From contig NZ_CP150227.1 of the NCBI RefSeq assembly GCF_037971845.1, positions 558,001 through 622,000 of the forward strand: a DNA stretch of 64,000 nucleotides. Reading direction: 5' to 3'. Below are positions 9,334 through 59,381 of the stretch, in pieces. The translations under genes were made by a program, and so were the position numbers. The DNA comes from Paenibacillus sp. FSL R5-0766. GTDB lineage: Bacteria; Bacillota; Bacilli; Paenibacillales; Paenibacillaceae. The notes under the pieces were generated by a model. That model saw only the letters and a program-made list of their open reading frames with translations, searched no databases and had not been told where the DNA came from. The stretch's first letter is position 1; every line of letters starts with the position of its first letter.

Positions 9334-9347
9334 ATTCCTAATTGGCC

Positions 9348-30061: not shown

Positions 30062-30114
30062 TCCCTATATTGAGAGTGCTCCGTATGATGGGTATAACGA
30101 GGTGTCCTAAACCG

Positions 30115-33742: not shown

Positions 33743-33748
33743 GGAGAG

Positions 33749-34018
33749 ATGATGATCATGACAACCGCAGTATTGCTTGAAGAAATCAAAGGTGCCCTTG
33801 CCGAAGTGCTGAATATGGAAGAGAACCACGCTGTTACATGGGACACATCCTTATTTGATGAACTTCATCTGGATTCAACGTCTGTTCTGGAACTATTGAT
33901 GACGTTGGAAGACCGTATTGATGGGCTGGAGATCGACCCGGATGAACTGGAGCCAGATGTATTTAACACAGTGGGTTCGCTAGCTGTATATATCGAAAAG
34001 CAACTCGTTGCTGCCTGA
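33749..34018 (+). CDS. Acyl carrier protein
   Basis: 89 residues, acidic, four-helix carrier protein. Phosphopantetheine attaches to Ser43 in LHLDSTSVLEL. Three in-frame ATGs (33749, 33752, 33758) follow GAGGAG at 33741-33746; the second or third may be the real one. It shares one base with the next gene. It is the natural partner of the ATP-grasp enzyme, the decarboxylase and the thiolase-fold enzymes, and is presumably activated by the cluster's own transferase at 44857. Confidence 0.88.
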   Translation: MMIMTTAVLLEEIKGALAEVLNMEENHAVTWDTSLFDELHLDSTSVLELLMTLEDRIDGLEIDPDELEPDVFNTVGSLAVYIEKQLVAA

Positions 34019-34890: not shown

Positions 34891-34909
34891 TCAGGAGGAG
34901 GGAAACGTG

Positions 34910-35857: not shown

Positions 35858-35882
35858 TCATGAGTCAATAGGAGGAGTGCAT

Positions 35883-38720: not shown

Positions 38721-38739
38721 ATGGAGGAGGGGATTAAAT

Positions 38740-40119: not shown

Positions 40120-40152
40120 ATATAACCAATATCAAATAAAGGAGGTCTCTTT

Positions 40153-42260: not shown

Positions 42261-42285
42261 ATGGAAGTGAGAGGAGGGGCGAAAG

Positions 42286-43593: not shown

Positions 43594-43608
43594 TACAGGA
43601 GGGAAATC

Positions 43609-44826: not shown

Positions 44827-44856
44827 GCAAGAAGAGTAGGGAGAGGGGGTGGCCTT

Positions 44857-45618: not shown

Positions 45619-45649
45619 GGATAATTTTAAATTATAACTCACATATCTA

Positions 45650-45677
45650 TTGTCTAAACATTGACATTACCTATAAT
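45650..45677 (+). promoter_or_regulatory. Promoter of the S9 peptidase gene
   Basis: TTGTCT (45650-45655), 16-nt spacer, TATAAT (45672-45677). It suggests that the peptidase is not simply the last gene of the cluster operon. Confidence 0.6.
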
Positions 45678-45742
45678 ATGGACAAATGGTACCTTAATTT
45701 ACCAATGTTAAATTCGTTGGTTCAATTCCAAGGAGGTTTGTC

Positions 45743-47554
45743 ATGATTCAGTTCCCCAAACCGGATGTCGAGCAATATTTTCAGACGTACCGTATTTCGC
45801 ATTTTGCCGTATCGGCAGACGAGAAACGTTTGTTCATGGACAGCAATCTGAACGGTCAGCCGAATATTTGGGCGATGGATTTGCCTGGAGGATACCCGTA
45901 TCCTTTAACGTACTTGAATCAGAGCAGTCAATTTATCAAAGCAGACCCGCAAGGACGTCATCTGCTTACCGCGTTTGATCGGGATGGAGATGAGAACTAT
46001 CATCTGTATGCACTTCCACCCGAGGGTGGTGTTCCACTGCCTGTGGTTCCGGCGGAAGCAAATGATCGCTGTTATTTCTCTGAGTTGTCCGAGGATGGAC
46101 AGCGTCTCTATTATGTCACCAGCGCGGGTAATCCAAATTATCTTAATTCACGTCGCATCGATCTGGAGACAGGGGAAGATGAACTGTTATACAGTGGAGA
46201 AGAGGTTACGAGCAGCCTGGTTGCTGTAAGTCCTGACGAGAAGAGTTATGTCATTTTAAAAATGTACTCCAATACGTATCAGACGGCGCATCTGTATCGT
46301 AACAATGAAGAAATGGTGATTCTGCCAGCTTCAGAACGTTATAGTCAGGTATCTGATCTGATTTTTGCAGATGATAATCGTCTTCTGTTCATTACCAATG
46401 ATGACTCCGCATACGCCTATGTGGCTGAATACCGTATTGATACCCGCGAATTCCGCTTATTGTGCAGAATCGAAGGGGAAGATGTGGAGTTCATCCGCTG
46501 GCATCAGGCTTCCGAGACCTTATATTTCTGGACACTTACAGGGCCAGAGAATCGTATGTACGTATTGGGCAAAAATGCCGATGAGCCTCGGCGCATAGAG
46601 ATGCCGCTGGATACGATAGAGCAGGTGAACGTTACGAAGGCTGGCAATGTGTATATCCTCGGACGTGGAGCGATCCAACCGCATAACATTTATCGCAAAA
46701 TAGCAGGTGCTGAGTCCTGGGAGCCGCTGACTGCCAATCGGGTAACCGGACTGGATCCAAGTGATCTCGTGTACCCTGACGTTATTCAGTATAACTCCTA
46801 CGACGGACTGGAGATTGAAGCTCTCTTGTTCAAAGCAAAACCAGAGCAGGCCAATGGTTACACCGTATTTTGGCCTCATGGTGGGCCGCAAGCATCCGAA
46901 GCGAAGTTTTTTCGGCCGATGTTCCAGATGATGCTCGCTCAGGGCTATCATGTCTTTGCACCGAATTTCCGTGGCAGTACCGGATATGGTGCGGAATTCG
47001 TCAAGATGGTTGAGCGTGATTGGGGTGAGGGTCCAAGGCTGGACTGTGTTGCCGGGATCAACTGGTTGTTTGATCAGGGAATTACCTCGCCAGAGCGGTT
47101 GTTTGTGGTAGGTGGAAGTTACGGGGGATATATGACCCTGTTATTGGCAGGTCGCCATCCGGAGCTGTTCCGGGCTGCGGTGGATATTTTTGGGCCAAGT
47201 AACTTGTTCACATTCCTGGAATCCGTACCGGAAGACTGGAAGCCGATGATGGATAACTGGCTGGGTGATCCGGTCCGTGACCGCGAACGCTTAACGAAGG
47301 ATTCACCGATTACGTATCTCGATCAGATGGTGAACCCAATGCTGGTCATTCAAGGTGCTAATGATCCAAGGGTCGTGAAGGCCGAATCCGATCAGATCGT
47401 GGCCGCGCTCCAGTCGAAGGGACTTGATGTGGAATACATCGTTTTGGATGATGAAGGTCATGGCTTCTCCAGGAAGACAAACGAGATTCTCGTGTACCGC
47501 CGGATGCTGGAGTTTTTGCAGAAACATCAGGAGAAACCGGCCTTGCACGTTTGA
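45743..47554 (+). CDS. S9 family prolyl-oligopeptidase-like peptidase
   Basis: 603 residues: beta-propeller domain (~1-330) and C-terminal alpha/beta hydrolase with nucleophile Ser in GGSYGGYM, Asp in GANDPRV and His in DDEGHGFSRK. Acyl-aminoacyl or dipeptidyl-peptidase type, cytoplasmic (no signal peptide). AGGAGG precedes the ATG. It follows the peptide cluster but has its own promoter and a terminator, so a role in peptide maturation is possible but not required. Confidence 0.88.
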   Translation: MIQFPKPDVEQYFQTYRISHFAVSADEKRLFMDSNLNGQPNIWAMDLPGGYPYPLTYLNQSSQFIKADPQGRHLLTAFDRDGDENYHLYALPPEGGVPLPVVPAEANDRCYFSELSEDGQRLYYVTSAGNPNYLNSRRIDLETGEDELLYSGEEVTSSLVAVSPDEKSYVILKMYSNTYQTAHLYRNNEEMVILPASERYSQVSDLIFADDNRLLFITNDDSAYAYVAEYRIDTREFRLLCRIEGEDVEFIRWHQASETLYFWTLTGPENRMYVLGKNADEPRRIEMPLDTIEQVNVTKAGNVYILGRGAIQPHNIYRKIAGAESWEPLTANRVTGLDPSDLVYPDVIQYNSYDGLEIEALLFKAKPEQANGYTVFWPHGGPQASEAKFFRPMFQMMLAQGYHVFAPNFRGSTGYGAEFVKMVERDWGEGPRLDCVAGINWLFDQGITSPERLFVVGGSYGGYMTLLLAGRHPELFRAAVDIFGPSNLFTFLESVPEDWKPMMDNWLGDPVRDRERLTKDSPITYLDQMVNPMLVIQGANDPRVVKAESDQIVAALQSKGLDVEYIVLDDEGHGFSRKTNEILVYRRMLEFLQKHQEKPALHV

Positions 47555-47594
47555 TTGGTAGTTTATAGCTCTAATATACGTATAGTAAGTATCC

Positions 47595-47623
47595 GAGTCG
47601 TTAGATGTTAACGGCTCCTTTTT
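47595..47623 (+). terminator. Terminator after the S9 peptidase
   Basis: GAGTCGTTA (47595-47603) pairs with TAACGGCTC (one G-T), followed by five T residues. Confidence 0.75.
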
Positions 47624-47804
47624 AATTCTTAAAAGAATAATAAGGAAACAATCGATTTTTGAGGATATCTTACCCAAACATCCCATCATTTTAGATTTCG
47701 TGTCTTATCATTTGTGCAATATGGCTGACGGGAACTTTTATTTTAAAATAAGTAAATTATTTACATTAAGAGAAGGTTTGTTTAACACTACGATGATGAA
47801 ACTG

Positions 47805-47860
47805 TTTTATTCTATGTATATTACTTTTTATGGATAAAAAGTAATATACATAGAATAAAA
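47805..47860. repeat. Perfect 26-bp inverted repeat in front of the phosphonate-type operon
   Basis: Arms 47805-47830 and 47835-47860 are exact reverse complements around the 4-nt centre TGGA. It ends 16 bp before the start codon and overlaps nothing coding; the ribosome binding site CGGAG lies directly after it. There is no T tract, so it is not an ordinary terminator; an operator, an mRNA-protecting hairpin, or a translation or termination control device is possible. A weak TTTACA (47760-47765) may mark the promoter. I see no gene in 47624-47804. Confidence 0.85.
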
Positions 47861-47876
47861 CGAACGGAGTGAGAAA

Positions 47877-49007
47877 ATGAATAAATTATGGCTGGAAGAT
47901 ACTACTTTGCGTGAAGGTGAACAATCCCCAGGGGTTTCCTTCAATCTTGAAGAGAAAGTTCAAATTGCAAAATATCTCGATTCTGTTGGTGTTACTGCGA
48001 TTGAAGTGGGAACTCCTGCAATGGGAGGACCAGAAACAGAAGCTATTTCTGCCATTCTCAATGCAGGCATTTCTGCGCGTTTGATAGGATGGAATCGTGG
48101 AAGAAAGTCTGACTTGGAAGCTTCGTTTGCATGTGGATTGAATTCTGTACATATCGGTCTCCCTGCTTCAGACCACCATTTACAAAACAAGTTTGAGAAA
48201 TCTAGAGAATGGGTAGTCGAAACGATGCAAGAGTTGGTTCAGTATGCTAAAAGCCAAGGAGCATGGGTATCGGTCAGTGCAGAGGATAGTGGCAGAGCCG
48301 AAGAAGATTTTTTGGTTCATTATGCGAAGGCCGCCAAAGAGGCAGGAGCAGACCGAATGAGATGCTCAGACACCATCGGAATATTAACTCCCTTTAAGGC
48401 ACATGATCTGTTTAGAAAAATTTCGATAGAGTCTGGATTGCCTATTATGGCACATATGCATAATGACTTCGGACTAGCTACTGCGAATACACTTGCTGCA
48501 GTCAAAGGCGGTGCTACCCATGTTCACTTTACAGTGAATGGTTTAGGCGAAAGGGCAGGGTTAGCTCCGATCGACGAGGTATTGTTAGGACTTATCAAAC
48601 ATAATCAGATTGATTTAAATGTGAATTTGTCCCTTTTAAAGGAACTCAGTGAATATGTTTCTGTTGCTTCTGGAAGACCTATTTCCAAAAATAAAGCTGT
48701 CACCGGGGATGCTATGTTTGCACATGAATCAGGCATTCACGTAGACGGTGTTCTTAAAATCCCGGAAGCGTTTGAGCCTTATCCACCGGAATTAGTCGGA
48801 GGTGAGAGGAAAATTGTAATAGGGAAACATAGTGGCAGTAATGCAATTCTTTATATCCTCCATAAACATAATGTGAATGCCCAAAGAGATGAGTTGGAGA
48901 AAGTTGTAGAACAGGTTAGATATAAAGCCGTTACTTCCAAGCAAGAAATAACAGATGAAGAAGTGATCTCAATCTATGAAGAGTACAAACAAGTCAGATT
49001 AACGTGA
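47877..49007 (+). CDS. Homocitrate/isopropylmalate synthase family enzyme, probable 2-phosphonomethylmalate synthase
   Basis: 376 residues, NifV/AksA-like. It condenses acetyl-CoA with a 2-oxo acid. Motifs: EDTTLREGEQSPGV (metal Asp), SDTIGILTP, HMHNDFGLA (metal His-x-His) and HFTVNGLGERAG; it lacks the C-terminal leucine-regulation domain of LeuA. PEP mutase in the same operon suggests that the acceptor is phosphonopyruvate, as for FrbC of FR-900098 synthesis. Iterative 2-oxo acid elongation or homocitrate synthesis are alternatives. Confidence 0.82.
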   Translation: MNKLWLEDTTLREGEQSPGVSFNLEEKVQIAKYLDSVGVTAIEVGTPAMGGPETEAISAILNAGISARLIGWNRGRKSDLEASFACGLNSVHIGLPASDHHLQNKFEKSREWVVETMQELVQYAKSQGAWVSVSAEDSGRAEEDFLVHYAKAAKEAGADRMRCSDTIGILTPFKAHDLFRKISIESGLPIMAHMHNDFGLATANTLAAVKGGATHVHFTVNGLGERAGLAPIDEVLLGLIKHNQIDLNVNLSLLKELSEYVSVASGRPISKNKAVTGDAMFAHESGIHVDGVLKIPEAFEPYPPELVGGERKIVIGKHSGSNAILYILHKHNVNAQRDELEKVVEQVRYKAVTSKQEITDEEVISIYEEYKQVRLT

Positions 49008-49021
49008 AGAGAGGCTTGAAG

Positions 49022-50305
49022 ATGGGGAAAACGGTAATCGAGAAAATTTTATCAAACAAATCGAACACGGATGTGACTGCGGGAGATATCGTGATTGCCA
49101 ATTTGGATTTGGTAATGGCACAGGATGGAAATGCACCCTTGGCAATCAAAATGCTGAAAGAGGAATTTAATACAAATAAAGTTTTTGATAATGAAAAAGT
49201 GGTAATGGTGATAGATCATTGTGGCCCAGCACCAAACCAAGGAGCTGCTAACTTGCAGCAGATTATGAGGAGTTTTGCATCAGAAGCGGATATTAAGTTG
49301 TTTGATTCTGGCGAAGGTGTGTCCCATGTATTGTTGCCAGAACAAGGGTGGGTTAAGCCTGGTGACTTTGTCATCGGGTCTGATTCTCATACCGTAACCT
49401 ATGGGGCTCTAAATTGTTTAGGAACCGGAATGGGCTCAACTGACATAACAGTTGGGATGTATACAGGGCAAGCTTGGGTAAGGGTACCTGAAAGTATCAA
49501 AATCAATTTAATTGGTATATTACCTCATTCTGCAAGCGCCAAAGACCTTGCTTTAGAGCTGGTTAGACTAATTGGTGTAAGTGGGGCAACAAATATGTGT
49601 TTGGAAATAGCAGGTGAAGGGCTACAGAGCTTAAATATGGATCATCGTTTTACAATTTGTAATATGGCCATTGAGATGGGGGGCAAATGTGCAATTATGC
49701 CTCTTGATGAAGTGTGTCAAGATTATCTTCATAAAAGATTAGGCCACCAATTAAGTGGCATTTGGTCTGACAGTGATGCAGATTACGTCGCAGAACACAC
49801 GATTGATCTGTCTACTTTGGAGCCATTGGTTGCACTTCCTCATAATCTGGAAAATATAGTGCCTCTAAAAGAGGTTGAAGGTAAACCGGTTAATATATGT
49901 TTTCTGGGAACTTGTACGAATGGGCGAATATCTGATATGGAAGCAGCTGCCAATATATTGAAGGGGCAGAAGGTACATTCTGATATTCGTCTCAATATCA
50001 CTCCAGGGTCTAGAGAAGTTTATAAAAAATCCCTTGAATTGGGCTACATTGAAATTTTCATTGAAGCAGGTGCGGTTATCACTCCTCCAGGATGTGGTGC
50101 CTGTATAGGTACACATTTAGGTGTGCCGGGAGACGGGGAGTATGTACTCTCGACAGCCAATCGTAACTTTAAAGGGAGAATGGGGAATGCGAATTCTTTC
50201 ATTATTTTAGGGTCTCCGGAAACTGTGGCTGCTACTGCCATTAAGGGCTATTTAACAGCAAGTTCGGATGTTGGGAAGGAGTCAGCGGCTTATTATGAAT
50301 TTTAA
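49022..50305 (+). CDS. LeuC-like aconitase-family isomerase, large subunit
   Basis: 427 residues from ATG 49022 (GAGAGG upstream; GTG 49004 is also in frame). 3-isopropylmalate/homoaconitate hydratase large subunit with [4Fe-4S] ligands in FLGTCTNGR and PPGCGACIGTH, plus VIDHCGPAPNQGA and GSDSHTVTYGALN. It would isomerise the condensation product, e.g. 2- to 3-phosphonomethylmalate. Works with the small subunit that follows and overlaps it. Confidence 0.85.
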   Translation: MGKTVIEKILSNKSNTDVTAGDIVIANLDLVMAQDGNAPLAIKMLKEEFNTNKVFDNEKVVMVIDHCGPAPNQGAANLQQIMRSFASEADIKLFDSGEGVSHVLLPEQGWVKPGDFVIGSDSHTVTYGALNCLGTGMGSTDITVGMYTGQAWVRVPESIKINLIGILPHSASAKDLALELVRLIGVSGATNMCLEIAGEGLQSLNMDHRFTICNMAIEMGGKCAIMPLDEVCQDYLHKRLGHQLSGIWSDSDADYVAEHTIDLSTLEPLVALPHNLENIVPLKEVEGKPVNICFLGTCTNGRISDMEAAANILKGQKVHSDIRLNITPGSREVYKKSLELGYIEIFIEAGAVITPPGCGACIGTHLGVPGDGEYVLSTANRNFKGRMGNANSFIILGSPETVAATAIKGYLTASSDVGKESAAYYEF

Positions 50306-50792
50306 AGGGAAGGCTCATTGGTTTGGAGATCATATTAATACCGATGATATTATTGCTGGAAAGTATAAACATGAATCCATTGATCCTGATGTACTTGTGA
50401 AACATATAATGGAAAACATTAGACCTCATTTCTATGATGAGATTACTTCTGGAGATTTTATTGTGGCTGGCGAAAATTTCGGTTGTGGCTCTTCCAGAGA
50501 ACAAGCTCCCATTATTATCAAACATGCGGGGATTACGGCTGTGATTGCAAAGTCATTTGCCAGGATCTTTTACAGAAACGCAATCAATATCGGATTGCTT
50601 CTCATTACTTGTGATACTTCTAAAATCAGAGAACATGATCAAATTGTATACGATCCTGAAAACAGGACGCTAACTGTTGTGGAACGAGATTTACATATAA
50701 AAACCCCGGCGCTTCCTCGAGAGATTCTTGATATTTCAAAAAGTGGAGGGCTATTAAACTACATCAAAAAAAATGGAGGCTTTTATGCATAG
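50295..50792 (+). CDS. LeuD-like aconitase-family isomerase, small subunit
   Basis: 165 residues. Swivel-domain subunit with [14 protein letters not shown] and the substrate loop [17 protein letters not shown] 50295 overlaps the end of the large subunit by 11 bp; AAGGAG is about 13 nt upstream, and an in-frame TTG at 50268 is possible. Completes the isomerase. Confidence 0.85.
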
Positions 50793-51789
50793 ATCAATTG
50801 ATGGGGTTTTAATTAAAGGGGACGGAATTGGAACTGAACTAATAAATGCTACTACTGAAATATTATCTGCGTTAACTACGGTCTCATTCAACTGGGAGGA
50901 GCATCACGCTGGTCTGGAGTATTATGAAAAGCATAATGAAATTGTACCGGAAGAGACCTTGAGAGCAATTAAGAGTAAAGGTATTGCGCTCAAGGGTCCG
51001 TTCACAACCTATGCAGGGAAAGGGCAAAGAAGCGCAAATTGGGTCATACGCAGGGAACTTGATTTGTATGTATGCATGAGACCTATCGTTTCTCATCATA
51101 GAGAGATTGATATTTTATTAATTCGTGAAAATACAGAAGATTTATATGGTGCTATAGAATGGGAGGCAGGTGATGCAGCCTATGCTGTTAAAGTTGCAAC
51201 TGCGGCTGGCTGTAAGCGAATAGCCTCCTATGCATTTAAAAAAGCTTATGAAAAAAAGCGAAATAAAGTAACAATAGCTCATAAAGCAAATAATCTAAAA
51301 AAAACGGAAGGCATGTTTCTGGAAACAGCACAACGTATAGGGGAACAGTATTCTTTATTGCAGACGGAGGATCAATTAATTGACAGTCTGACAGCAGATT
51401 TGGTGATGCATCCTGAAAATTATGACGTTATCCTGACAACAAATACGTTCGGAGATATACTTTCGAGTTTAGGAGCCGGGTTGTTGGGGAGTCATGCATT
51501 AGTACCAAGTGCAAGTATTAATCGTGATATTGTTTTAGTTGAAGCCGCACATGGAAGTGCACCGGAACTAAAGGGGAAGAACATAGCCAATCCAACAGGT
51601 TTAATTCTTGCAAGTGCTCTTTTGTTAGAAGAAATTGAACTGCATGAGGAAGCCAAAATGATAAGGCTAGCTATTGAAAATGTTTCAAAAAAAAACATCA
51701 CGACATTTGATAGTGGGGGACAAGCTTCCACAATGGAATTTGCACAAGAAATCAAAAAAGAAATTAAGGAAATGAGTCTTTATGCATGA
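50785..51789 (+). CDS. Isopropylmalate/homoisocitrate dehydrogenase family enzyme
   Basis: 334 residues from ATG 50785 (GGAGG 5 nt upstream), overlapping the small subunit by 8 bp. NAD(P)-dependent beta-decarboxylating dehydrogenase: KGDGIGTELINATTEIL, RENTEDLYGAIEWEAG, NTFGDILSSLGAGLLGS and EAAHGSAPELKGKNIANPTGLILA. In this operon it would oxidise and decarboxylate 3-phosphonomethylmalate to 2-oxo-4-phosphonobutyrate, as FrbB does. Confidence 0.85.
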   Translation: MHRSIDGVLIKGDGIGTELINATTEILSALTTVSFNWEEHHAGLEYYEKHNEIVPEETLRAIKSKGIALKGPFTTYAGKGQRSANWVIRRELDLYVCMRPIVSHHREIDILLIRENTEDLYGAIEWEAGDAAYAVKVATAAGCKRIASYAFKKAYEKKRNKVTIAHKANNLKKTEGMFLETAQRIGEQYSLLQTEDQLIDSLTADLVMHPENYDVILTTNTFGDILSSLGAGLLGSHALVPSASINRDIVLVEAAHGSAPELKGKNIANPTGLILASALLLEEIELHEEAKMIRLAIENVSKKNITTFDSGGQASTMEFAQEIKKEIKEMSLYA

Positions 51790-52351
51790 GTCGAATATGA
51801 TTGGACTTCCAGGTCAGCATATGGAAGGTATGTTTTCTGATTTTAGTCGTGACCCTGACTTTAGAAATGCAGTTATTACCCGCTTTATCTCTACCTTTTT
51901 TAACACATTTGATGATGTAAAGGGAGCTGTATGTACTCTTTGTGTTGCAGCAGGAGACTATTTGAACTCCAATGTTGGTCCAGTCGACGCCATGAAATTT
52001 TTGGAAGTGCACGAAGTGATTCATAAAGGACATGTTATATGTGTAAATACATGTGTTGTTCCACACACCAGAACGAATATTATGAACGTTGTAGTAAGTT
52101 TCAAAAAGAATATGCCAGCGGAGTACATCGTTGATTTGTTTCAAGAAAAGTTAAATTCAGTTATCGTACCTGAACCTTTTAGTCTGGATGATACTGCGAA
52201 ATTCTTCGAGTTTTTTAGGGATAACTCCGAGTATGGCTATACTTCAAATTATATTTTTTTGTTCACAAGCACGATTACCACCCTTTCTGATCATACAGTC
52301 AGTTTCTGGATTGCTATTGATAATCAATACTTATTAATTAATCGTAAATGA
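51782..52351 (+). CDS. Protein of unknown family in the phosphonate-type operon
   Basis: 189 residues, overlapping the dehydrogenase by 8 bp. No family recognised. No signal peptide or membrane helix is evident. Cys and His are frequent in the middle (AVCTLCVAAGD, HEVIHKGHVICVNTCVVPH), which could hold a metal. The tight overlap makes it a real part of the operon and a candidate for a pathway-specific step. Confidence 0.7.
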   Translation: MHESNMIGLPGQHMEGMFSDFSRDPDFRNAVITRFISTFFNTFDDVKGAVCTLCVAAGDYLNSNVGPVDAMKFLEVHEVIHKGHVICVNTCVVPHTRTNIMNVVVSFKKNMPAEYIVDLFQEKLNSVIVPEPFSLDDTAKFFEFFRDNSEYGYTSNYIFLFTSTITTLSDHTVSFWIAIDNQYLLINRK

Positions 52352-52363
52352 GGCAACAGTATA

Positions 52364-53389
52364 ATGAAAAAAACTAAAGTCGGGATTGTTGGTTATGGCA
52401 CGATTGGAAAAAGAGTTGCGGAGGCTGTCAGACTTCAAGATGACATGGAACTGGTAGGTGTCGTGTTTAGAAGATTAAATACTAATGCTCTTACTGCTCA
52501 AATTCAAGGCATTCCTATATATTTAAGTGATATTAATTTAAATGATGATTTCCTTCAAGTGGATATTGAACCACTGGGAGATATTAAAGATCTCTTAGAA
52601 AATGTAAGTATTATTGTGGATTGTACACCCAGAGGACAAGCCGAGAAGAACTTACTTTTATACCGCGAGTACAACGTTTCCGTTATTCTTCAAGGAGGAG
52701 AGAGTGAAAGGCTGGGTGTGACCTACAATTCTTTTATCAACACCACTGATGTTAAAAATGAAACATTGATCAGAGTTGCGAGCTGCAACACTACAGGTAT
52801 AGTGAGGATTTTACATGCGTTATTACAAGTGTTTGATATAAAACATGTATTTGTCACCCTGGTGAGATGCGGCACAGATCCGGATAAAAGCTCAAAAGGG
52901 ATAGTTAATGGATTGTCCATAACTACAGACAAGTCTCACCATGCTAATGATGTAAATCTCTTGCTTCCTGATATAGAGATATATACGAAGGCGGTTGCTG
53001 CACCCATGACGCATGGACATCTTCTTATATTCTCTATTGATATCGATAGAGAATATCATTCAGAAGGTGTAAAAAAGAGATTTGCAGAGCATCCCAGAAT
53101 TCAACTGCTGCCTCAAAAATATAGTCAGAGTACTTCGAGCATTGAACAATCTTATTCTCATAGAAAGAGAGGGGATCGACCATTTGTAATTATACTTGAA
53201 GACTCTATTGAAGTTGTAGGTCAGAAATTATACTTTATGGCCTCTATTCATATGGAATCCATTGTGGTCCCGGAAACGATCGACTCCATTAGGGCGAAAT
53301 TTTCAAATTTGATGGCAGAAGAAATCATCTATAAGACAGATAAGGCCCTGGGCATTAATAAAGGAATGGAATCCTACCAAGTGAAATAA
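52364..53389 (+). CDS. Archaeal-type (type II) glyceraldehyde-3-phosphate dehydrogenase
   Basis: 341 residues. The N-terminal Rossmann motif VGIVGYGTIGKRVAEAV and catalytic Cys in SCNTTG are typical of the archaeal GapII family, rare in Firmicutes and unlike housekeeping GapA. It interconverts an aldehyde with an acyl phosphate or acid using NAD(P). In this operon it may act on a phosphonate analogue of a triose phosphate, or be an insensitive duplicate of a target enzyme. GAGGC lies upstream of the ATG, which starts 12 bp after the previous stop. Confidence 0.82.
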   Translation: MKKTKVGIVGYGTIGKRVAEAVRLQDDMELVGVVFRRLNTNALTAQIQGIPIYLSDINLNDDFLQVDIEPLGDIKDLLENVSIIVDCTPRGQAEKNLLLYREYNVSVILQGGESERLGVTYNSFINTTDVKNETLIRVASCNTTGIVRILHALLQVFDIKHVFVTLVRCGTDPDKSSKGIVNGLSITTDKSHHANDVNLLLPDIEIYTKAVAAPMTHGHLLIFSIDIDREYHSEGVKKRFAEHPRIQLLPQKYSQSTSSIEQSYSHRKRGDRPFVIILEDSIEVVGQKLYFMASIHMESIVVPETIDSIRAKFSNLMAEEIIYKTDKALGINKGMESYQVK

Positions 53390-53405
53390 GGGAGAGGTGC
53401 TTCAT

Positions 53406-54326
53406 ATGTACAATAAACAAAAAAAATTGCGAGACGCTTTGTATTCCCGGAATATTGTGAAAGTTGTCGGAGCTCATGATGCTTTGTCCGCTATCATTGG
53501 TGAACAAGTTGGTTTTGATGCTATTTGGGCTAGTGGACTGGGAATTTCAGCAACTCATGGCGTACCTGATGCGAGCATTCTTAATATGACAGAATTTTTA
53601 GAGGCAGCTGAAGTTATGGATAAAGCAACCAGTATACCGGTAATAGCTGATTGTGATACTGGTTTTGGTGAAGTGAATAATGTTAAAAGGATGATTACCG
53701 AGTACGAGAGAAGAGGGATTGCTGCCGTTTGTATAGAAGACAAGCTTTTCCCTAAGAGAAACAGTTTTTTAGCGGGCGGCCAACATCTTGCGGATATTGA
53801 CGAGTTTTCTACCAAAATTGAGGTTGCTAAACGCACACAACGTACAGAAGATTTTATGGTCATTGCCCGACTTGAATCGTTTATTGCAGGAACTGGTTTG
53901 GAAGATGCGTTGAGAAGGGCAAGATCGTATACAGATGCTGGGGCGGACGCTCTTTTAGTACATTCCAAATCCAAGGATACAGAAGAGGTTTTCTCATTTT
54001 CTTCTCGATGGCAACAAGAAAACAGAAACGTTCCTCTAATCGTTGTACCGACTACCTATTGTAGTGTTGAGATAGAGGAACTCGTTCGGCATCACTACAG
54101 TATGGTGATTTATGCTAATCAGGCATTAAGGGCTTCCGTGAGCTCTATACAAAATGTATTGAGTAATATCATTGAATCGGGTACGAGTAGGTACATCGAG
54201 GATGAAGTGGCGGAAGTGAAAAAGGTTTTTAACCTTATAGGTACAGATGACTTAAATCAAACTCAGCAATGGTATGAAGGGCGTCTTGTAGAATACAGGG
54301 AAAGTGGTGTGGAAATACCAAGATGA
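53406..54326 (+). CDS. pepM: Phosphoenolpyruvate mutase (PEP phosphomutase)
   Basis: 306 residues from ATG 53406 (GGGAGAGG upstream). Isocitrate-lyase/PEP-mutase superfamily with the diagnostic mutase motif EDKLFPKRNS at residues 111-120 and metal-binding ADCDTGFG (Asp82, Asp84). It rearranges PEP to phosphonopyruvate, the entry step of nearly all C-P natural products. No phosphonopyruvate decarboxylase is nearby; the thermodynamic pull could come from the condensing enzyme at 47877 instead. Confidence 0.92.
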   Translation: MYNKQKKLRDALYSRNIVKVVGAHDALSAIIGEQVGFDAIWASGLGISATHGVPDASILNMTEFLEAAEVMDKATSIPVIADCDTGFGEVNNVKRMITEYERRGIAAVCIEDKLFPKRNSFLAGGQHLADIDEFSTKIEVAKRTQRTEDFMVIARLESFIAGTGLEDALRRARSYTDAGADALLVHSKSKDTEEVFSFSSRWQQENRNVPLIVVPTTYCSVEIEELVRHHYSMVIYANQALRASVSSIQNVLSNIIESGTSRYIEDEVAEVKKVFNLIGTDDLNQTQQWYEGRLVEYRESGVEIPR

Positions 54327-54829
54327 TTAAAAAATATGACTGGGATGCGTTCGAACAAGACATGGATCGTATTTGTCACAAGATGGGTGATACGGAATGG
54401 GATTTGATCATAGGGATTGCAAGAGGGGGATTGCCATTAGCTGTAGCGTTATCTCACAGATTCAATTGCAAAAATTTTGGAGTTGTTGTTGCGAGAAAAA
54501 CGAATAGTGAGGATGCTTTTGATTTGGATTCAACTATGAAAGTGATTGCTGAGCCTGCTCTTCCTGAATTGAAGCAAGTTTACAATGTGCTTATCGTTGA
54601 TGATATTGTTGCACTTGGCGATGGATTTTCTATAGTTGAGAACCTTATCATTAATAAGTATGGGGACAATATTAATGTTCAGTTTGTGTCATTGTTTGCA
54701 GATTTCGAACAAATTAAACAAGATAAATACAGCGGAATTATAAGTCGCATGTTTTCTCCTAATCCTATTAACAATAAATTAGTTTGGGTGGAATTTCCTT
54801 GGGAGAGAGAAGGTGTGACTCATGTTTAA
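54323..54829 (+). CDS. Type I phosphoribosyltransferase
   Basis: 168 residues, overlapping pepM by 4 bp (ATGA). Phosphoribosyltransferase fold with IGIARGGLPLAVALSHRF and the PRPP-binding loop NVLIVDDIVALGDGF, in which the usual Thr-Gly is Leu-Gly/Asp. Closest in outline to xanthine/hypoxanthine Gpt-like enzymes. It would join a nucleobase or similar group to PRPP or to a PRPP analogue. Confidence 0.82.
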   Translation: MIKKYDWDAFEQDMDRICHKMGDTEWDLIIGIARGGLPLAVALSHRFNCKNFGVVVARKTNSEDAFDLDSTMKVIAEPALPELKQVYNVLIVDDIVALGDGFSIVENLIINKYGDNINVQFVSLFADFEQIKQDKYSGIISRMFSPNPINNKLVWVEFPWEREGVTHV

Positions 54830-55706
54830 AGTGTGGCTAGGCCCGGCGTCTACTCATCTCGCAGATAAATTGAACCAATATCCAAATATTCATCAATTAA
54901 AAAGCAGCATCCGTTTTTTCCCTGATGGGGAATCCTGCATCAAACTTGAAGAAGATATAACAAATGAAGATGTCATTATCATTCAAAATACCAGTCCACC
55001 TCAAGATGAGAATCTTCGCCACTTGTTTCAGATGGTTGATGTTCTAAGGTTTAATAGAGCAAGGACTATAACTTGCATTGTTCCTTATCTGGCCTACTCT
55101 AGACAAGACAGAAGAACACATCCGGGCGAGCCTTTCTCTTTGGAAATAGTAGTAAAGATATTGGAATTATTAGGAGTAAACACATTGGTCACTTTTGAGC
55201 TTCATAATTCGAATATTAATGTTGAAACGCATGTAGAAATTATAAATATAAGTACAGACGATTTATTCGTCGATTGGATTCGTGGAATAGAGATCGAACG
55301 ACCGATTTTGATTTGCCCGGATAAAGGAAGCCGAAATCGTATTCAGAAAATTGCAGGTATTCTAGATATTCCATTTCTTGCTTTAAACAAATATAAGAAC
55401 CTGAATGGGGAGACATGGTATGAAAACGAGGTGGAGGTAGAAGGAACCACAGCAATCATAATAGACGATCTATGTTCCTCTGGCTCAACTCTCATTCCCT
55501 TATGTCAGCATTTAATGAGCAATGGTGCTTCTCGTATTAAGTATGGTGTCACTCATTTCTTTGCAGACTCTTCTTATATTCAAGAGAAAGTGGATGCAGA
55601 TTTAGAGATTTATTGTACAGATACTATTCCTTCCTGTCAGAGTTCTGTTAGTATAGAAAAATTAATTTATTCATTTATAACACTTGAAAGAAGTGATGTG
55701 CTGTGA
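54822..55706 (+). CDS. Ribose-phosphate pyrophosphokinase, archaeal/class III-like
   Basis: 294 residues, overlapping the previous gene by 8 bp. PRPP synthetase family: RFFPDGESCIKL, IVPYLAYSRQDRRTHPGEPFS (catalytic region), and PRPP loop IIIDDLCSSGSTL. It is shorter than the bacterial housekeeping Prs and matches the archaeal type. It makes PRPP, or a 1-pyrophosphate of a phosphonate sugar, for the neighbouring phosphoribosyltransferase. Confidence 0.85.
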   Translation: MFKVWLGPASTHLADKLNQYPNIHQLKSSIRFFPDGESCIKLEEDITNEDVIIIQNTSPPQDENLRHLFQMVDVLRFNRARTITCIVPYLAYSRQDRRTHPGEPFSLEIVVKILELLGVNTLVTFELHNSNINVETHVEIINISTDDLFVDWIRGIEIERPILICPDKGSRNRIQKIAGILDIPFLALNKYKNLNGETWYENEVEVEGTTAIIIDDLCSSGSTLIPLCQHLMSNGASRIKYGVTHFFADSSYIQEKVDADLEIYCTDTIPSCQSSVSIEKLIYSFITLERSDVL

Positions 55707-56371
55707 AAATTGGTCCTTCTATAATGTGTGCGAACCCGCTAAAACTTCAAGACGAATTAGATGCTGTAGCAGCAGCAGACTGGTTGCATATCGATATTAT
55801 GGACGGCCATCTTGTTCCTAATTTCACCTTCGGAATAGAAGCAACTCAAAGAATTATAAACTATACCCCTCTGAAATGTGAAATTCATCTAATGAGTGAT
55901 AAGCCGTTTGAACATTTAGATCTCTTTATTAGTTTAGCACCCGACATAATTACTATTCACCCCGAGGTCATCCATGACCCTCTAAGAGTTATTTATAAAA
56001 TAAAGAGTGCTGGAATAAAGGCCGGTATCGCCATTAATCCTAGCATATCTCTAAATAATTTGAGTGAACTCCTTAGAGAAGTGGACCAATTTATTATTAT
56101 GGGCGTAAATCCAGGCTTTATTGGTCAAAAATTATTAAAGCCTTCATTGACAAAAGCATTACATTTAGCAAACATTCTTAAACATCAGAATTTAAACCAA
56201 GATATTATACTGGATGGTGGAGTGAAGTTGGATAATCTCCATGTAATTTACGAGAGTCAGGTCGACGGGATTGTAGTTGGAACAGGTATTTTTCATCATA
56301 GTGGCGGAACAGAAGAGGCTGTTAAACAATTCAAACAAACAACTAGAAATCTACATAAGACCTTAACTTAA
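55703..56371 (+). CDS. Ribulose-phosphate 3-epimerase family protein
   Basis: 222 residues, GTG start overlapping the previous stop (GTGA). TIM-barrel epimerase with HIDIMDGHLVPNFTFG, EIHLM, MGVNPGFIGQ and DGGV motifs; metal and catalytic Asp/His are kept. It interconverts ribulose- and xylulose-5-phosphate or the 6-phosphate ketohexose analogue; here it may process a phosphonate sugar. Confidence 0.85.
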   Translation: MKIGPSIMCANPLKLQDELDAVAAADWLHIDIMDGHLVPNFTFGIEATQRIINYTPLKCEIHLMSDKPFEHLDLFISLAPDIITIHPEVIHDPLRVIYKIKSAGIKAGIAINPSISLNNLSELLREVDQFIIMGVNPGFIGQKLLKPSLTKALHLANILKHQNLNQDIILDGGVKLDNLHVIYESQVDGIVVGTGIFHHSGGTEEAVKQFKQTTRNLHKTLT

Positions 56372-56385
56372 AAAGGAGAAGGGAA

Positions 56386-56988
56386 ATGAAAATCGTATTA
56401 GCAACATGGAACAAGTCGAAAAAGCAGTGGTTAAGTAAGGGGCTGAAATCATTAAATTTCCCAGTATTCACCTTAGAGAATTATCATCATACGGATATTA
56501 GTGATGTTGAGGAAACCGGGGATACGTGTGAGGACAATGCTTTATTGAAAGTACAAGCGATCCCTAACGATGGTGAATCAATCATTATTGGTGAAGACTC
56601 GGGGCTCTTTGTGAATGCGTTGAATGGTTTTCCAGGTGTTAAAACTGCAAGATGGATGGAAGGTACGGATGATGACAGAGCGGAGCAAATCGTAACGAAA
56701 ATGAATAATGAAAGCAATAGAGAGGCGTATTTTCAAAGTGCAATTGCGGCGATTTTTCCCAACGGTCAATCTGTTGTAGTGGAGGCTAAACTGCATGGAG
56801 AGATAACAACTGAAAAAAGAGGAGATAAAGATTCAGGATATTCTCAAATTTTCGAGCTCTCCAGCGGGAAAACCATAGCCGAAATGGAAGCTGGTGAATT
56901 TGAACAAAATGACCACAGGCGAATGGCTATTGAGAAGCTAAAAGCAATGATAGAAGGGAATGCGTATGCAGCCAAATCTGAATATTAG
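56386..56988 (+). CDS. HAM1/RdgB-like non-canonical NTP pyrophosphatase
   Basis: 200 residues. Family motifs: VLATWNKSKKQWL, GEDSGLFVNALNGFPGVKTA and GDKDSGYSQIF. It hydrolyses inosine/xanthosine-type triphosphates to monophosphates. In the operon it could release a product from its triphosphate or protect the cell from a nucleotide analogue. AAAAGGAGAAGGG precedes the ATG. Confidence 0.85.
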   Translation: MKIVLATWNKSKKQWLSKGLKSLNFPVFTLENYHHTDISDVEETGDTCEDNALLKVQAIPNDGESIIIGEDSGLFVNALNGFPGVKTARWMEGTDDDRAEQIVTKMNNESNREAYFQSAIAAIFPNGQSVVVEAKLHGEITTEKRGDKDSGYSQIFELSSGKTIAEMEAGEFEQNDHRRMAIEKLKAMIEGNAYAAKSEY

Positions 56989-58219
56989 TAACAAAGTAAG
57001 AGGAATTGCGATCCTGACCGGAGTCGCCGTGTTGGGAGATGCGATGCTCTTTGTTGTTCTTCCTATTTATTGGAAGGAATTTGGATTAAGTGCTGTATGG
57101 CAGATTGGTCTTCTACTTTCAATTAACCGTCTAATTCGACTTCCCGTTAATCCTCTTGTTGGGTTGTTTTATAAGCACTTTCAGTTGAGGACTGGAGTGC
57201 TGTTGGCTTTAGGTATTGCTATAGTTACAACAGCGTCCTATGGCTTGCTACAGGAGTTTTGGAGCCTGTTGATTATGCGTGCTTGCTGGGGAGTTGGATG
57301 GTCACTCCTTCGACTTGGAGGTTTCCTGAGTATTGTAAATATAACGGATGATACGAACAGAGGCAAGTATATCGGCCTTTATAATGGTTTGTGGGGGCTT
57401 GGTTCTCTTGCAGGTATGTTAAGTGGGGGGATACTTGTAGACCAGACATCCGTTTTATTTGTAACTACGTTATTCTCAGTCATTGGTTTGTGCTTTTTTC
57501 CATTTATCTGGTTATTCATTCCTCAACAGGACAACCATCAGGAACAGGCTAACGCTCATTTAACAGGTACTCGCATACGATCTCCTTATTTTGTTCTCGT
57601 CTTGATAACTGGAGGAAGTGTAGGCTTGGTTATTTTCGGCCTGTTTTCTTCCACTTTAAGCCCGTTGATTGGACGGATTTATGCAGGTGACTGGAGCTTC
57701 CTTACACTGGTTATTGGGGCAGCAACCCTTACTGGGATGATTCAAGCGATAAGATGGGGATGGGAGCCTTTTGTGGCACCATTCTTCGGGAAGAAAATCG
57801 ATTCCAGTCGTTCCAAACATCCCTTGCTACTGATTCCTTTATTTCTAGCGGGGTGTCTATTTATTGTTTTAGGGAATCTCCAATCCATCGGTCTTCTTCT
57901 TATGTTTTTATTGATTTTCCAAATAAGTTCTACTTTATTGGTAACTGCCACAGATACCTTTGCTGCTAATAATGCAGCGGCACAGACAGATCGAGTAAAG
58001 GCAATGACATTATATACTATTTTTGTTGATGTTGGCGCAGCTTTGGGACCATTACTATCCTATATAATTATGAGTGTGTATGAGGTTTCAATTGTTTATT
58101 TTATTGCAGGAGGCCTTTTACTTGTCATTTCACTTGTATGGCTTATATTTATGAGATCAAATCCATTCTCACATCATTCCTCTGCTGTTTCAACTGCTTA
58201 TACGGCTAAAAAAGAGTGA
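56960..58219 (+). CDS. MFS transporter, probable exporter
   Basis: 419 residues with twelve membrane helices; cytoplasmic loop (~195-215) between halves and MFS-like segments (GWSLLRLGGFLS, RGKYIGLYNGLWGLGSLAGMLSGG). It overlaps the pyrophosphatase by 29 bp; starts at ATG 56960 or 56966. Last full gene of the operon, so the probable exporter of its product. Confidence 0.88.
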   Translation: MRMQPNLNISNKVRGIAILTGVAVLGDAMLFVVLPIYWKEFGLSAVWQIGLLLSINRLIRLPVNPLVGLFYKHFQLRTGVLLALGIAIVTTASYGLLQEFWSLLIMRACWGVGWSLLRLGGFLSIVNITDDTNRGKYIGLYNGLWGLGSLAGMLSGGILVDQTSVLFVTTLFSVIGLCFFPFIWLFIPQQDNHQEQANAHLTGTRIRSPYFVLVLITGGSVGLVIFGLFSSTLSPLIGRIYAGDWSFLTLVIGAATLTGMIQAIRWGWEPFVAPFFGKKIDSSRSKHPLLLIPLFLAGCLFIVLGNLQSIGLLLMFLLIFQISSTLLVTATDTFAANNAAAQTDRVKAMTLYTIFVDVGAALGPLLSYIIMSVYEVSIVYFIAGGLLLVISLVWLIFMRSNPFSHHSSAVSTAYTAKKE

Positions 58220-58267
58220 TGTATTCACATAAGTTCTAGTTGTAGCAAATATCAGGAGGTCAAATAC

Positions 58268-58375
58268 ATGAATGGGAAATCAGGATCGTGTACACCAAAA
58301 GGCATTTGGGTACATGATCCTTTTTTTGTAACCTACGGACACTCTACTAATCCAGCAATGCGACAATCGAATTAA
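58268..58375 (+). CDS. Possible 35-residue peptide at the operon end (or truncated gene)
   Basis: ATG 58268 has a perfect AGGAGG 8 nt upstream and reads MNGKSGSCTPKGIWVHDP.. to a stop at 58375. The transcription terminator lies inside the frame, and the frame runs into the 3' end of the opposite-strand kinase gene. It looks like the start of a gene cut off at the right edge of the operon, or a short leader peptide; it may not make a functional product. Confidence 0.3.
   Translation: MNGKSGSCTPKGIWVHDPFFVTYGHSTNPAMRQSN
58283..58327 (+). terminator. Terminator of the phosphonate-type operon
   Basis: GGATCGTGTACACC (58283-58296) pairs with GGGTACATGATCC (58308-58320), followed by seven T residues. 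Confidence 0.85.
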
Positions 58376-59381
58376 TGGACTGCTGAGCCCACTTTGCAAA
58401 AGGCAGGTCGGCTGCCCATGTCACTTGTCCTGTCGCTTTGGCTTCCCCCCACCACAAGATACGTTGATAGAGCAGATGCATGCTGAGACGTGTGCGGAAG
58501 TGTTGGCATTTCTCCTCATCTGCTGCACAGACCAGATCCCGGTAGCAGCGAAGGAACTGTGCGGCCAGTTCTGGTTGCCCCTCACGAACATACCTGGTGG
58601 ATATTTTGGTTAGGTCGGCTGTGCCGTCTCCGAAATAGGCGGTTGTAAAATCGAACAAACCACTAATCTGCCACCCTGAAGAACGGTCGTCCAGATGTTG
58701 AATCAGAATATTCTCGACCTTGAAGTCTCCCATGACAAAACACGGAACAGCTCTGGACCGAAATGCCGGTTCAGCATTCTTGAATTGCTCGTCCACCCAC
58801 TGAACATCTTCATCCGTAATCACCGAGTACTGTTCAGCATCATGTAACCAGTGACGAATGGTTCCGTACAACCAGTCCAGATAATCGCCTGCAAAGGAAA
58901 CAATCTGCTGCGCTACAGGGTCATACTCCCCGGCATCAGGCACCTTCCAGCGGTGCAGTTCAGCCAAAGTATGGGCAAACATACTGGCGATCTCTTCCTG
59001 ATCTTGCTGTGACAGTGAAGCCTGGAATGCTGGATCATACAGGTGATTCCCGGGCAGGCGTGGCATTATGGCATAACTCCAGCCTAGCAGATGGGTATCT
59101 TCATGTAATAAATATGGATCAGGGACAGGAATGGACGTATGTTTTGCCAGTTGTTCTACAAAGAACTTTTCTTCCTGTAACTGTCCTGCATATAAAGGAT
59201 TGCCTTTCAGAATATACTCTCCACGGGAAGAGCGAATGAGCAGTGTCTGACCCATAACACCTTTATCCGTTCGTCGATAATCTTCAAGGGTTCCCAGGTC
59301 AAGCTCATTCAGCGCATCCTGCAATGAAACTGCGGCCACTTCGCCAAGTTGATTGGAACCAAAATATATACGTGTTGTCAT
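58347..59381 (-). CDS. Aminoglycoside phosphotransferase-like kinase (APH family)
   Basis: 344 residues. Protein-kinase-like fold with the catalytic loop CFVMGDFKVENILI and metal-binding GLFDFTTAYFGDG. The usual His of the HGD motif is replaced by Met (MGD), but the catalytic Asp and Asn remain. Substrate unknown; many such chromosomal proteins do not confer resistance. It is followed 21 bp upstream on the same strand by the SMI1/KNR4 gene, possibly one transcript. Confidence 0.8.
   Translation of the reverse strand: MTTRIYFGSNQLGEVAAVSLQDALNELDLGTLEDYRRTDKGVMGQTLLIRSSRGEYILKGNPLYAGQLQEEKFFVEQLAKHTSIPVPDPYLLHEDTHLLGWSYAIMPRLPGNHLYDPAFQASLSQQDQEEIASMFAHTLAELHRWKVPDAGEYDPVAQQIVSFAGDYLDWLYGTIRHWLHDAEQYSVITDEDVQWVDEQFKNAEPAFRSRAVPCFVMGDFKVENILIQHLDDRSSGWQISGLFDFTTAYFGDGTADLTKISTRYVREGQPELAAQFLRCYRDLVCAADEEKCQHFRTRLSMHLLYQRILWWGEAKATGQVTWAADLPFAKWAQQSINSIVALLD

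What the first reader, a model, noticed from the sequence alone, without database searches (positions are those of the whole stretch)
47877..58219. Phosphonate-type operon with sugar-phosphate and nucleotide enzymes: possible phosphonate nucleotide or sugar-phosphate mimic
PEP mutase carries the diagnostic EDKLFPKRNS. The synthase, LeuC/LeuD-like isomerase and IPMDH-like enzyme match the FrbC/FrbA/FrbB logic to 2-oxo-4-phosphonobutyrate (split isomerase subunits as in pantaphos-type clusters). The other genes (archaeal-type GAPDH, phosphoribosyltransferase, archaeal-type PRPP synthetase, ribulose-P epimerase, HAM1 pyrophosphatase) all handle triose/pentose phosphates or nucleotides and are not part of any phosphonate pathway I know. 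A C-P isostere of a sugar phosphate carried into a nucleotide-like product is a plausible new chemistry.
Basis: partly seen in the sequence, partly recalled or inferred. Interest (0 to 1): 0.95.

Follow-up and report, generated by a model that had tools for sequence, protein, structure and literature searches.

The report
Operon predicted to make phosphonate nucleotides
A twelve-gene bacterial operon, with relatives in four other bacteria from three phyla, puts the gene of a likely carbon-phosphorus bond-making enzyme beside genes of sugar-phosphate and nucleotide enzyme families, and is predicted to build a nucleotide look-alike whose phosphate would be held by a hard-to-break carbon-phosphorus bond.

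Summary
Window 47877-58219 is one plus-strand run of 12 genes (largest gap 14 bp; GC 0.394 against 0.476 outside): PepM with EDKX5NS, a homocitrate-synthase-like/LeuCD-like/IDH-like module, type II GAPDH, PRTase, PRPP synthetase, ribulose-phosphate epimerase, HAM1 and an MFS transporter. I found four more clusters (Oceanobacillus, Tumebacillus, a Bradyrhizobium plasmid, a Streptomyces plasmid). PepM, GAPDH-II, the degenerate GAPDH, PRPP synthetase and a PRTase-family gene occur in 5 of 5, the epimerase in 4 of 5. Two lack the lengthening module and instead carry PGDH-like, phosphoglycerate kinase, RpiA and transaldolase-like genes; together the clusters cover, transketolase excepted, a route from 3-phosphohydroxypyruvate to NMP. 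Cluster GAPDHs and PRPP synthetases each form one clade, and several cluster enzymes share changes at loops that (recalled) hold the substrate phosphate. Best reading: glycolysis, pentose-phosphate and PRPP chemistry run on C-P analogues, ending in a nucleoside phosphonate. No chemistry was tested; reduction, activation, carbon addition and isomerisation must come from the host in the window strain. The paper searches run here showed no such pathway.

The parts
47877..49007 (+). homocitrate-synthase/IPM-synthase-like; predicted 2-phosphonomethylmalate synthase (FrbC/HvrC-like)
   Evidence: TIGR02660 454.9 bits, just under the equivalog cut-off 462.9; 42% to Bradyrhizobium and 43% to Streptomyces cluster copies
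49004..50305 (+). LeuC/HacA-like isomerase large subunit
   Evidence: NF001614 528.7 vs 385
50295..50792 (+). LeuD/HacB-like isomerase small subunit (ORF opens at 50268; ATG also at 50295)
   Evidence: TIGR02087 178.9 vs 108.95 (run from base 50298)
50773..51789 (+). isocitrate/homoisocitrate/IPM dehydrogenase-like; predicted to give 2-oxo-4-phosphonobutyrate
   Evidence: PF00180 266.3 bits; 41% to Streptomyces cluster IDH
51782..52351 (+). degenerate type II GAPDH-like protein, 189 aa, matching only the C-terminal half, no catalytic Cys; predicted partner subunit of the GAPDH
   Evidence: NF003251 E 9.8e-7 over 33-182; counterparts without CNTT in 5 of 5 clusters; Foldseek top hits archaeal GAPDH on a model of pLDDT 56.2
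52364..53389 (+). type II (archaeal-type) GAPDH, catalytic SCNTT kept
   Evidence: Cys at 169 and one clade
53397..54326 (+). PEP mutase (PepM), EDKLFPKRNS
   Evidence: TIGR02320 332.4 vs 319.55; best match among solved structures PEP phosphomutase 5unc
54323..54829 (+). phosphoribosyltransferase-family protein with an odd PRPP loop (VDDIVALGDGF)
   Evidence: PF00156 44.7 vs 26.3; 38% to the Bradyrhizobium cluster copy, which has a like loop
54822..55706 (+). PRPP synthetase, phosphonate-cluster clade, loop DDLCSSGST
55703..56371 (+). ribulose-phosphate 3-epimerase-like, loops PGFIGQ and GTGIF
56386..56988 (+). HAM1/RdgB-like nucleoside-triphosphate pyrophosphatase; predicted self-protection
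   Evidence: PF01725 152.5 vs 22.5
56960..58219 (+). MFS transporter; predicted exporter
   Evidence: PF07690 100 vs 33.4
47595..47617 (+). terminator-like hairpin between the upstream S9 peptidase gene and the operon
   Evidence: 14 such sites found in 47500-58450, 7.5 expected by shuffling

Best explanation
The operon likely makes a nucleotide whose 5'-phosphate is replaced by a phosphonate, by predicted use of its own copies of glycolytic, pentose-phosphate and PRPP enzymes on carbon-phosphorus analogues of their usual substrates. Predicted steps (all inferred from family and context, none assayed): PepM turns PEP into phosphonopyruvate; the homocitrate-synthase-like, LeuCD-like and IDH-like enzymes lengthen it to 2-oxo-4-phosphonobutyrate, the CH2-for-O mimic of 3-phosphohydroxypyruvate; a PGDH-type dehydrogenase and a phosphoglycerate kinase (host enzymes in the window strain, in-cluster in Oceanobacillus and Tumebacillus) give the mimics of 3-PGA and 1,3-BPG; the type II GAPDH with its degenerate partner reduces this to the GAP mimic; host transketolase (perhaps with the transaldolase-like protein in two relatives) makes the pentose mimic; the epimerase and a ribose-5-phosphate isomerase give the ribose-5-phosphate mimic; the PRPP synthetase and PRTase make the PRPP mimic and the nucleotide mimic; HAM1 likely removes unwanted triphosphates and the MFS protein likely exports the product. 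Clusters without the lengthening module would make the shorter, oxygen-deleted series from phosphonolactate.
For: Five clusters share PepM + GAPDH-II + degenerate GAPDH + PRPP synthetase + a PRTase-family gene (window; others); RPE in 4 of 5. The union of genes covers 3-phosphohydroxypyruvate to NMP except transketolase: PGDH-like, PGK, GAPDH, TalC-like, RPE, RpiA, PRPPS, PRTase. In the Bacilli searches the only genomes with GAPDH-II over the cut-off were the window genome, G620 and G849, each with PepM within three genes (1 of 392, 2 of 398, 1 of 75, 1 of 7, 1 of 397 genomes; overlapping sets). GAPDH clade 100/98, PRPPS clade 100/99. PRPPS loop DDLCSSG[ST]T in 17 of 17 clade hits (window and Tumebacillus among them) and in the Oceanobacillus, Bradyrhizobium and Streptomyces copies; 0 of the 59 other hits. 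GAPDH position 169: Cys in 12 of 12 cluster-type against Arg in 113 of 114 others. RPE: PGF/PGY followed by I or T in 4 of 4 cluster copies, PGFGGQ in the 3 housekeeping RPEs and the 5 PDB sequences aligned. PGKs of both clusters read THLGYPKG where PGK 3uwd reads SHLGRPKG. The window genome has its own copies elsewhere: two more PRPPS, one RPE, one SerA, one transketolase, one type I GAPDH over the cut-offs. Homocitrate-synthase chemistry is effectively one-way, so the direction is biosynthetic (established knowledge).
Against: Nothing biochemical was tested. The window operon has no gene for the 2-oxo reduction, the kinase step, the carbon-addition step or RpiA; these are laid on host enzymes. 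The Streptomyces cluster has no RPE but a PGI and a Gfo/Idh/MocA oxidoreductase, so its route to pentose may differ. The PRTases differ in type (weakly XPRT-like in window and Bradyrhizobium, APRT in Oceanobacillus, PyrE-like by eye in Tumebacillus, PRTase-CE in Streptomyces), and the Oceanobacillus and Tumebacillus ones keep ordinary PRPP loops. That the changed loops bind the phosphate is recalled from the enzyme families, not computed here. The RPE loop also varies in two non-cluster RPE-like proteins of Oceanobacillus (PGFSGQ, PGRPNQ). 8 of the 12 GAPDHs called cluster-type were labelled by similarity; I did not see their neighbourhoods. Several tailoring matches are weak or under the curated cut-off (CoaE-like 17.8 vs 27; NDK-like 22 vs 27; dTMP kinase NF005923 33.7 vs 193, though PF02223 35.4 vs 27). 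PepM is often found without these genes: 6 of the 6 other PepM plasmid loci opened had no GAPDH-II listed.
Confidence: 0.7

Rival explanations
1. The phosphonate is a small sugar-phosphate mimic (2-oxo-4-phosphonobutyrate or a derivative), and the GAPDH, epimerase, PRPP synthetase and PRTase are insensitive spare copies that protect the producer from it.
For: The window genome has other copies of PRPPS and RPE and a type I GAPDH; target duplication is a common self-protection device (recalled), and the flavophos-type Burkholderia locus seen here has a lumazine synthase gene beside pepM.
Against: It needs several targets that happen to be consecutive steps; RpiA, PGK, a PGDH-like enzyme and a transaldolase-like one appear as well; the degenerate GAPDH in 5 of 5 has no clear place in it.
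Confidence: 0.13
2. The PRPP/PRTase genes make an ordinary nucleotide that is attached to the phosphonate as a handle, as CMP is in FR-900098; the GAPDH makes an aldehyde phosphonate.
For: Nucleotidyl activation is reported as widespread in phosphonate biosynthesis (start of the abstract of PMC6697681, listing); Bradyrhizobium has an NTP_transf_5 gene (52.6 vs 31.2), and the gene at L034 15863-16576 looks like a nucleotidyltransferase by eye.
Against: No nucleotidyltransferase domain among the 12 window genes; host PRPP would do; it does not explain the clade-specific PRPPS loop, RPE, PGK or RpiA.
Confidence: 0.08
3. The pathway stops at a C-P pentose phosphate or PRPP analogue, and the PRTase-like protein is a regulator or acts on an acceptor that is not a nucleobase.
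For: PRTases differ in type among clusters; the window PRTase lacks the usual PRPP-loop threonines.
Against: A PRTase-family gene is in 5 of 5; HAM1 in the window; kinase-like genes in the Bradyrhizobium and Streptomyces clusters (weak matches).
Confidence: 0.09

Closest known systems
FR-900098 biosynthesis (FrbC/FrbA/FrbB: phosphonopyruvate -> 2-Pmm -> 3-Pmm -> 2-oxo-4-phosphonobutyrate; figure legend in PMC13302981 and passages of PMC12871164)
   Same: PepM plus homocitrate-synthase-like, aconitase-family and IDH-family genes in one operon
   Different: isomerase split in two subunits; no CMP transferase/PLP enzyme (FrbH, recalled); instead GAPDH, PRPPS, PRTase, RPE, HAM1
Pantaphos-type (hvr) clusters; a Pantoea plasmid locus of that look by gene content was opened (NZ_CP059087)
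   Same: PepM, a homocitrate-synthase-like gene (44% to the window one), aconitase-family large subunit, MFS
   Different: LLM-class flavin enzyme, methyltransferase and GNAT there; no IDH, GAPDH or PRPPS listed
Flavophos and other 2-Pmm gene-cluster families (PMC12871164, section 4 read)
   Same: genome mining there found 2-Pmm clusters of unknown product and reached Bacillota; the window cluster could be among them
   Different: the passages and the section read name no GAPDH ('glyceraldehyde' 0 hits) and no nucleotide product; its data files were not read
Fosfadecin and fosfocytocin, nucleotide antibiotics (a reference title met in PMC13302981)
   Same: natural nucleotide-linked mimics of a sugar-phosphate metabolite (structure recalled)
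   Different: recalled as nucleotides joined to a phosphate ester, with no C-P bond inside the sugar
Type II GAPDH in glycolytic or plasmid islands (L092; plasmid hits H2, H4, H5)
   Same: same enzyme family
   Different: no PepM listed nearby, outside the cluster clade, Arg at 169

Membership tests
PepM-dependent phosphonate biosynthetic cluster | PepM with EDKX5NS and above the curated cut-off | tested here: met
PepM-dependent phosphonate biosynthetic cluster | a gene for a step that pulls the unfavourable PepM equilibrium | tested here: met
   HCS-like gene present (family level only; activity untested); rationale in a PMC12871164 passage
PepM-dependent phosphonate biosynthetic cluster | C-P product made | not testable with these tools
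   needs 31P NMR/MS
FR-900098 pathway | FrbC/A/B-like module | tested here: met
   family level
FR-900098 pathway | FrbH-like CMP transferase/decarboxylase (recalled) | tested here: not met
   none of the 12 genes has such a domain
Pantaphos pathway | flavin enzyme and methyltransferase beside PepM | tested here: not met
   present in L122, absent in the window operon
Type II GAPDH | family score and catalytic Cys | tested here: met
Type II GAPDH with an ordinary glycolytic role | glycolytic neighbourhood and Arg at 169 | tested here: not met
Proposed family: PepM + GAPDH-II pair + PRPPS clusters | PepM with EDKX5NS, GAPDH-II with Cys169, Cys-less GAPDH half, PRPPS with DDLCSSG[ST]T | tested here: met
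   5 of 5 clusters
Nucleoside phosphonate biosynthesis | enzymes act on the C-P analogues | not testable with these tools
   needs enzyme assays

The most novel reading that the evidence does not exclude
Bacteria of three phyla share a previously undescribed pathway that rebuilds central carbon metabolism on carbon-phosphorus analogues, from PEP through triose and pentose phosphonates to PRPP phosphonate and nucleoside phosphonates: a natural, de novo made counterpart of the synthetic nucleoside-phosphonate drugs, with a heteromeric GAPDH of catalytic and dead subunits as its signature enzyme.
Probability: 0.6. Interest if true: 0.97.

Novelty: new variant of a known kind. Interest (0 to 1): 0.93.

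Why it matters
Natural phosphonates made through PepM are, as far as I recall, small acids, amides, peptides or head groups of lipids and glycans. In the recent review PMC13302981 a term search found 'nucleoside' nowhere and 'nucleotide' once, in a reference title. If the reading is right, nature makes hydrolysis-proof NMP and PRPP mimics, and the enzymes would be a biocatalytic route to a drug class now made by synthesis. It would also be a directly testable case of a whole segment of primary metabolism copied and retuned for an isostere, and it gives two sequence signatures (GAPDH Cys169, PRPPS DDLCSSG[ST]T) for finding more producers.

Tried and rejected
Considered and rejected: (a) catabolic direction (phosphonate to PEP): the HCS-like step and PRPP synthetase run one way, and a transporter gene closes the operon; in Oceanobacillus and Tumebacillus, which lack HCS in the locus, only the PRPPS argument remains. 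(b) GAPDH-II as an archaeal-style glycolytic enzyme: seen in L092 and on three plasmids with no PepM listed and outside the clade. (c) The upstream S9 peptidase/PPTase locus as part of the same pathway: terminator-like hairpin, GC step, and I saw no such genes beside the core in the other four clusters (by eye).

Led nowhere or stayed weak: the genome-contig scan gave 78 loci, mostly archaeal by title; I inspected L034 and L092 and left the other 76 unread. The family-level protein search had matches in 193 of 295 genomes, but the rows listed for other genomes cover only the N-terminal part of the query (the list is cut). The third protein search gave only 5 proteins, so the half evolves fast. 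AlphaFold of two halves gave low confidence (pLDDT 56.2 and 46.4); the second model was not searched. Rfam: 0 matches in 40000-64000. One search, a paper search on archaeal GAPDH phosphate sites, gave nothing I used. Of the 37 plasmid records with a GAPDH match (20 listed) I opened 4 by that route; the Streptomyces record came through the PRPPS search.
Full report
Observation. The finding's gene list is right. Twelve + strand genes run from 47877 to 58219 with gaps of -29 to +14 bp; GC is 0.394 against 0.476 for the rest of the window; a terminator-like hairpin lies at 47595-47617 behind the preceding S9 peptidase gene, and the next gene (58347-59381, APH-like) is on the other strand. Families. 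PepM passes the TIGR02320 cut-off and carries EDKX5NS. An AlphaFold model is of low confidence (pLDDT 56.2), yet its five best Foldseek hits in the PDB are archaeal GAPDHs (2yyy, 2czc, 1cf2; best E 7.8e-7).

Other clusters. A scan with the GAPDH alignment led to Oceanobacillus sp. CFH 90083 (L034): DMT-type exporter-like gene, RPE, PRPPS, GAPDH half, GAPDH-II, TalC/fructose-6-phosphate-aldolase-like, RpiA, PepM, PGDH-like dehydrogenase, phosphoglycerate kinase, adenine PRTase. A class-wide genome search led to G620 (L114/L115), whose contig length 4516965 equals that of the Tumebacillus algifaecis record: PyrE-like PRTase (by eye), half, GAPDH-II, TalC-like and RpiA (47% and 48% to the Oceanobacillus ones), PepM, PGDH-like, PGK, PRPPS, RPE, DMT-type gene. 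Plasmid searches led to Bradyrhizobium japonicum p1S06B (L116): HCS-like, LeuC-like, LeuD-like, PepM, IDH-like, half, GAPDH-II, PGDH-like, an NTP_transf_5 gene, PRTase, PRPPS, RPE, a weakly CoaE-like protein, PhyH, IMPase; and to Streptomyces scopuliridis NZ_CP109092 (L152): AcnA-type aconitase, HCS-like (62% to Bradyrhizobium), PepM, IDH-like, PGI, PhyH, IMPase, PRTase-CE, dTMP-kinase-like, weakly NDK-like, half (26% to the Tumebacillus half, E 6e-6), PRPPS, GAPDH-II, Gfo/Idh/MocA oxidoreductase. Core in 5 of 5: PepM, GAPDH-II, half, PRPPS, a PRTase-family gene. RPE 4 of 5 (not Streptomyces). Lengthening module in 3 of 5 (window, Bradyrhizobium, Streptomyces); PGDH-like in 3 of 5 (Oceanobacillus, Tumebacillus, Bradyrhizobium); PGK, RpiA and TalC-like in 2 of 5.

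Rarity. Type II GAPDH at E 1e-20 was found in 1 of 392 genomes of the order, 2 of 398 of the class, 1 of 75 of the genus, 1 of 7 of G620's family and 1 of 397 of the Oceanobacillus order; the sets overlap. The carriers were only the window genome, G620 and G849 (Oceanobacillus), each with PepM within three genes. PepM itself is often alone: six other PepM plasmid loci opened had no GAPDH-II listed. Sporadic spread, low GC and plasmid residence in two cases speak for horizontal transfer (inference).

Sequence signatures. GAPDH: of 126 sequences, 12 labelled cluster-type (4 with a neighbourhood seen, 8 by similarity) all have Cys at position 169, where 113 of 114 others have Arg; the one exception, P0115, falls inside the cluster clade; the Streptomyces copy, found later, also has Cys. 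The tree of 54 of the 126 rows (72 left out to keep it small) puts the 13 in one clade, 100/98. PRPPS: 76 hits, with a gap between E 1e-47 and 4.5e-37; the 17 above it all have DDLCSSG[ST]T, none of the 59 below; the O, B and S copies share it; clade support 100/99 on 45 rows. RPE: PGF/PGY followed by I or T, and GTG[IV]F, in 4 of 4 cluster copies, against PGFGGQ in the three hosts' housekeeping RPEs and the five PDB sequences aligned; two further RPE-like proteins of Oceanobacillus vary at the same place. PRTase: window and Bradyrhizobium have VDD[IV]VA[LI]GD[GL]F where 1vdm has VDDVSDTGKT; the Oceanobacillus and Tumebacillus PRTases have ordinary loops. PGK: THLGYPKG in both against SHLGRPKG in 3uwd. 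That these loops hold the substrate phosphate is family knowledge recalled by me, not a computation. Equal contig lengths suggest, without proof, that the GAPDH and PRPPS of Fontibacillus solani (P0003, P0125; 80499) and of a metagenome contig (P0004, P0132; 10844) lie together.

Mechanism. Shown: gene content, co-occurrence, clades, residue changes. Inferred: every reaction. Phosphonopyruvate is the oxygen-deleted analogue of 3-phosphohydroxypyruvate, and 2-oxo-4-phosphonobutyrate its CH2 isostere; PGDH, PGK and GAPDH are the enzymes that link 3-phosphohydroxypyruvate to GAP, and transketolase, RPE, RpiA, PRPPS and PRTase those that take GAP to NMP. Finding these families with PepM, the first of them in clusters that lack the lengthening module, is what a shadow pathway predicts. 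The weakest step is carbon addition: the window genome has one transketolase over the cut-off elsewhere, two relatives have a TalC-like gene, and the Bradyrhizobium and Streptomyces clusters have an IMPase-family gene and the latter a PGI, which would also fit a hexose route. The weak XPRT-like match of the PRTase and HAM1 (a family that cleaves ITP/XTP, recalled) would fit a 6-oxopurine base, at low confidence.

Known systems. The first four steps match the FR-900098 logic (figure legend in PMC13302981; passages of PMC12871164), but no FrbH-like gene is present. PMC12871164 (section 4 read) reports families of 2-Pmm clusters with unknown products that reach into Bacillota; whether this cluster is among them I could not tell. 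Searches (listings; one search returned no paper), passages of three papers and that one section showed no pathway to a nucleoside phosphonate and no PepM cluster with GAPDH-II and PRPPS. The library holds only open-licence papers; two papers I looked for were not held.

Verdict. Real, recurrent, cross-phylum, and best read as biosynthesis of sugar-phosphate and nucleotide phosphonates. Confidence in that mechanism 0.7; no chemistry tested.

Noticed in passing
window 30070-47554: A second likely natural-product locus upstream: two KASIII-like genes, ATP-grasp, ornithine/DAP-decarboxylase-like, acyl-CoA dehydrogenase, MatE transporter, arginase-like, two M16-peptidase-like, a phosphopantetheinyl-transferase-family gene and an S9 peptidase.
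   Followed up: no
L120 (Agrobacterium plasmid pAtCFBP6625a) 11109-17264: Gene annotated hypothetical but 44% to the window HCS, LeuC-like, a small hypothetical protein, PepM (56% to the Bradyrhizobium one), IDH-like and an M20 peptidase, no GAPDH listed: a sibling phosphonate cluster that may branch from 2-oxo-4-phosphonobutyrate.
   Followed up: partly
L121 (Agrobacterium vitis plasmid pAvCG78a): Two PepM-family genes with citrate-synthase and citryl-CoA-lyase genes, and beyond an IS3 element PRAI, uracil PRTase, EamA transporter, an NRPS adenylation protein and pseudouridine-5'-phosphate glycosidase: possibly another phosphonate plus nucleotide locus.
   Followed up: no
L155 (Burkholderia stagnalis plasmid) 5822-11146: PepM and an HCS-like gene (47% to the window one) near a lumazine synthase gene, as would fit a flavophos-type cluster with a spare target copy.
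   Followed up: no
window 58347-59381 (-); L116 21362-22456; L152 19474-20598: APH-family phosphotransferase convergent with the operon; the Bradyrhizobium and Streptomyces clusters each hold an unknown protein (30% identical to each other) with an APH-like look by eye only.
   Followed up: no
P0122, P0129, P0198: Cluster-type PRPP synthetases in Paenibacillus sp. QZ-Y1 (88% to the window) and Paenibacillus sp. VT-400, and a GAPDH half in Terribacillus saccharophilus, point to three more likely carriers whose neighbourhoods I did not see.
   Followed up: no
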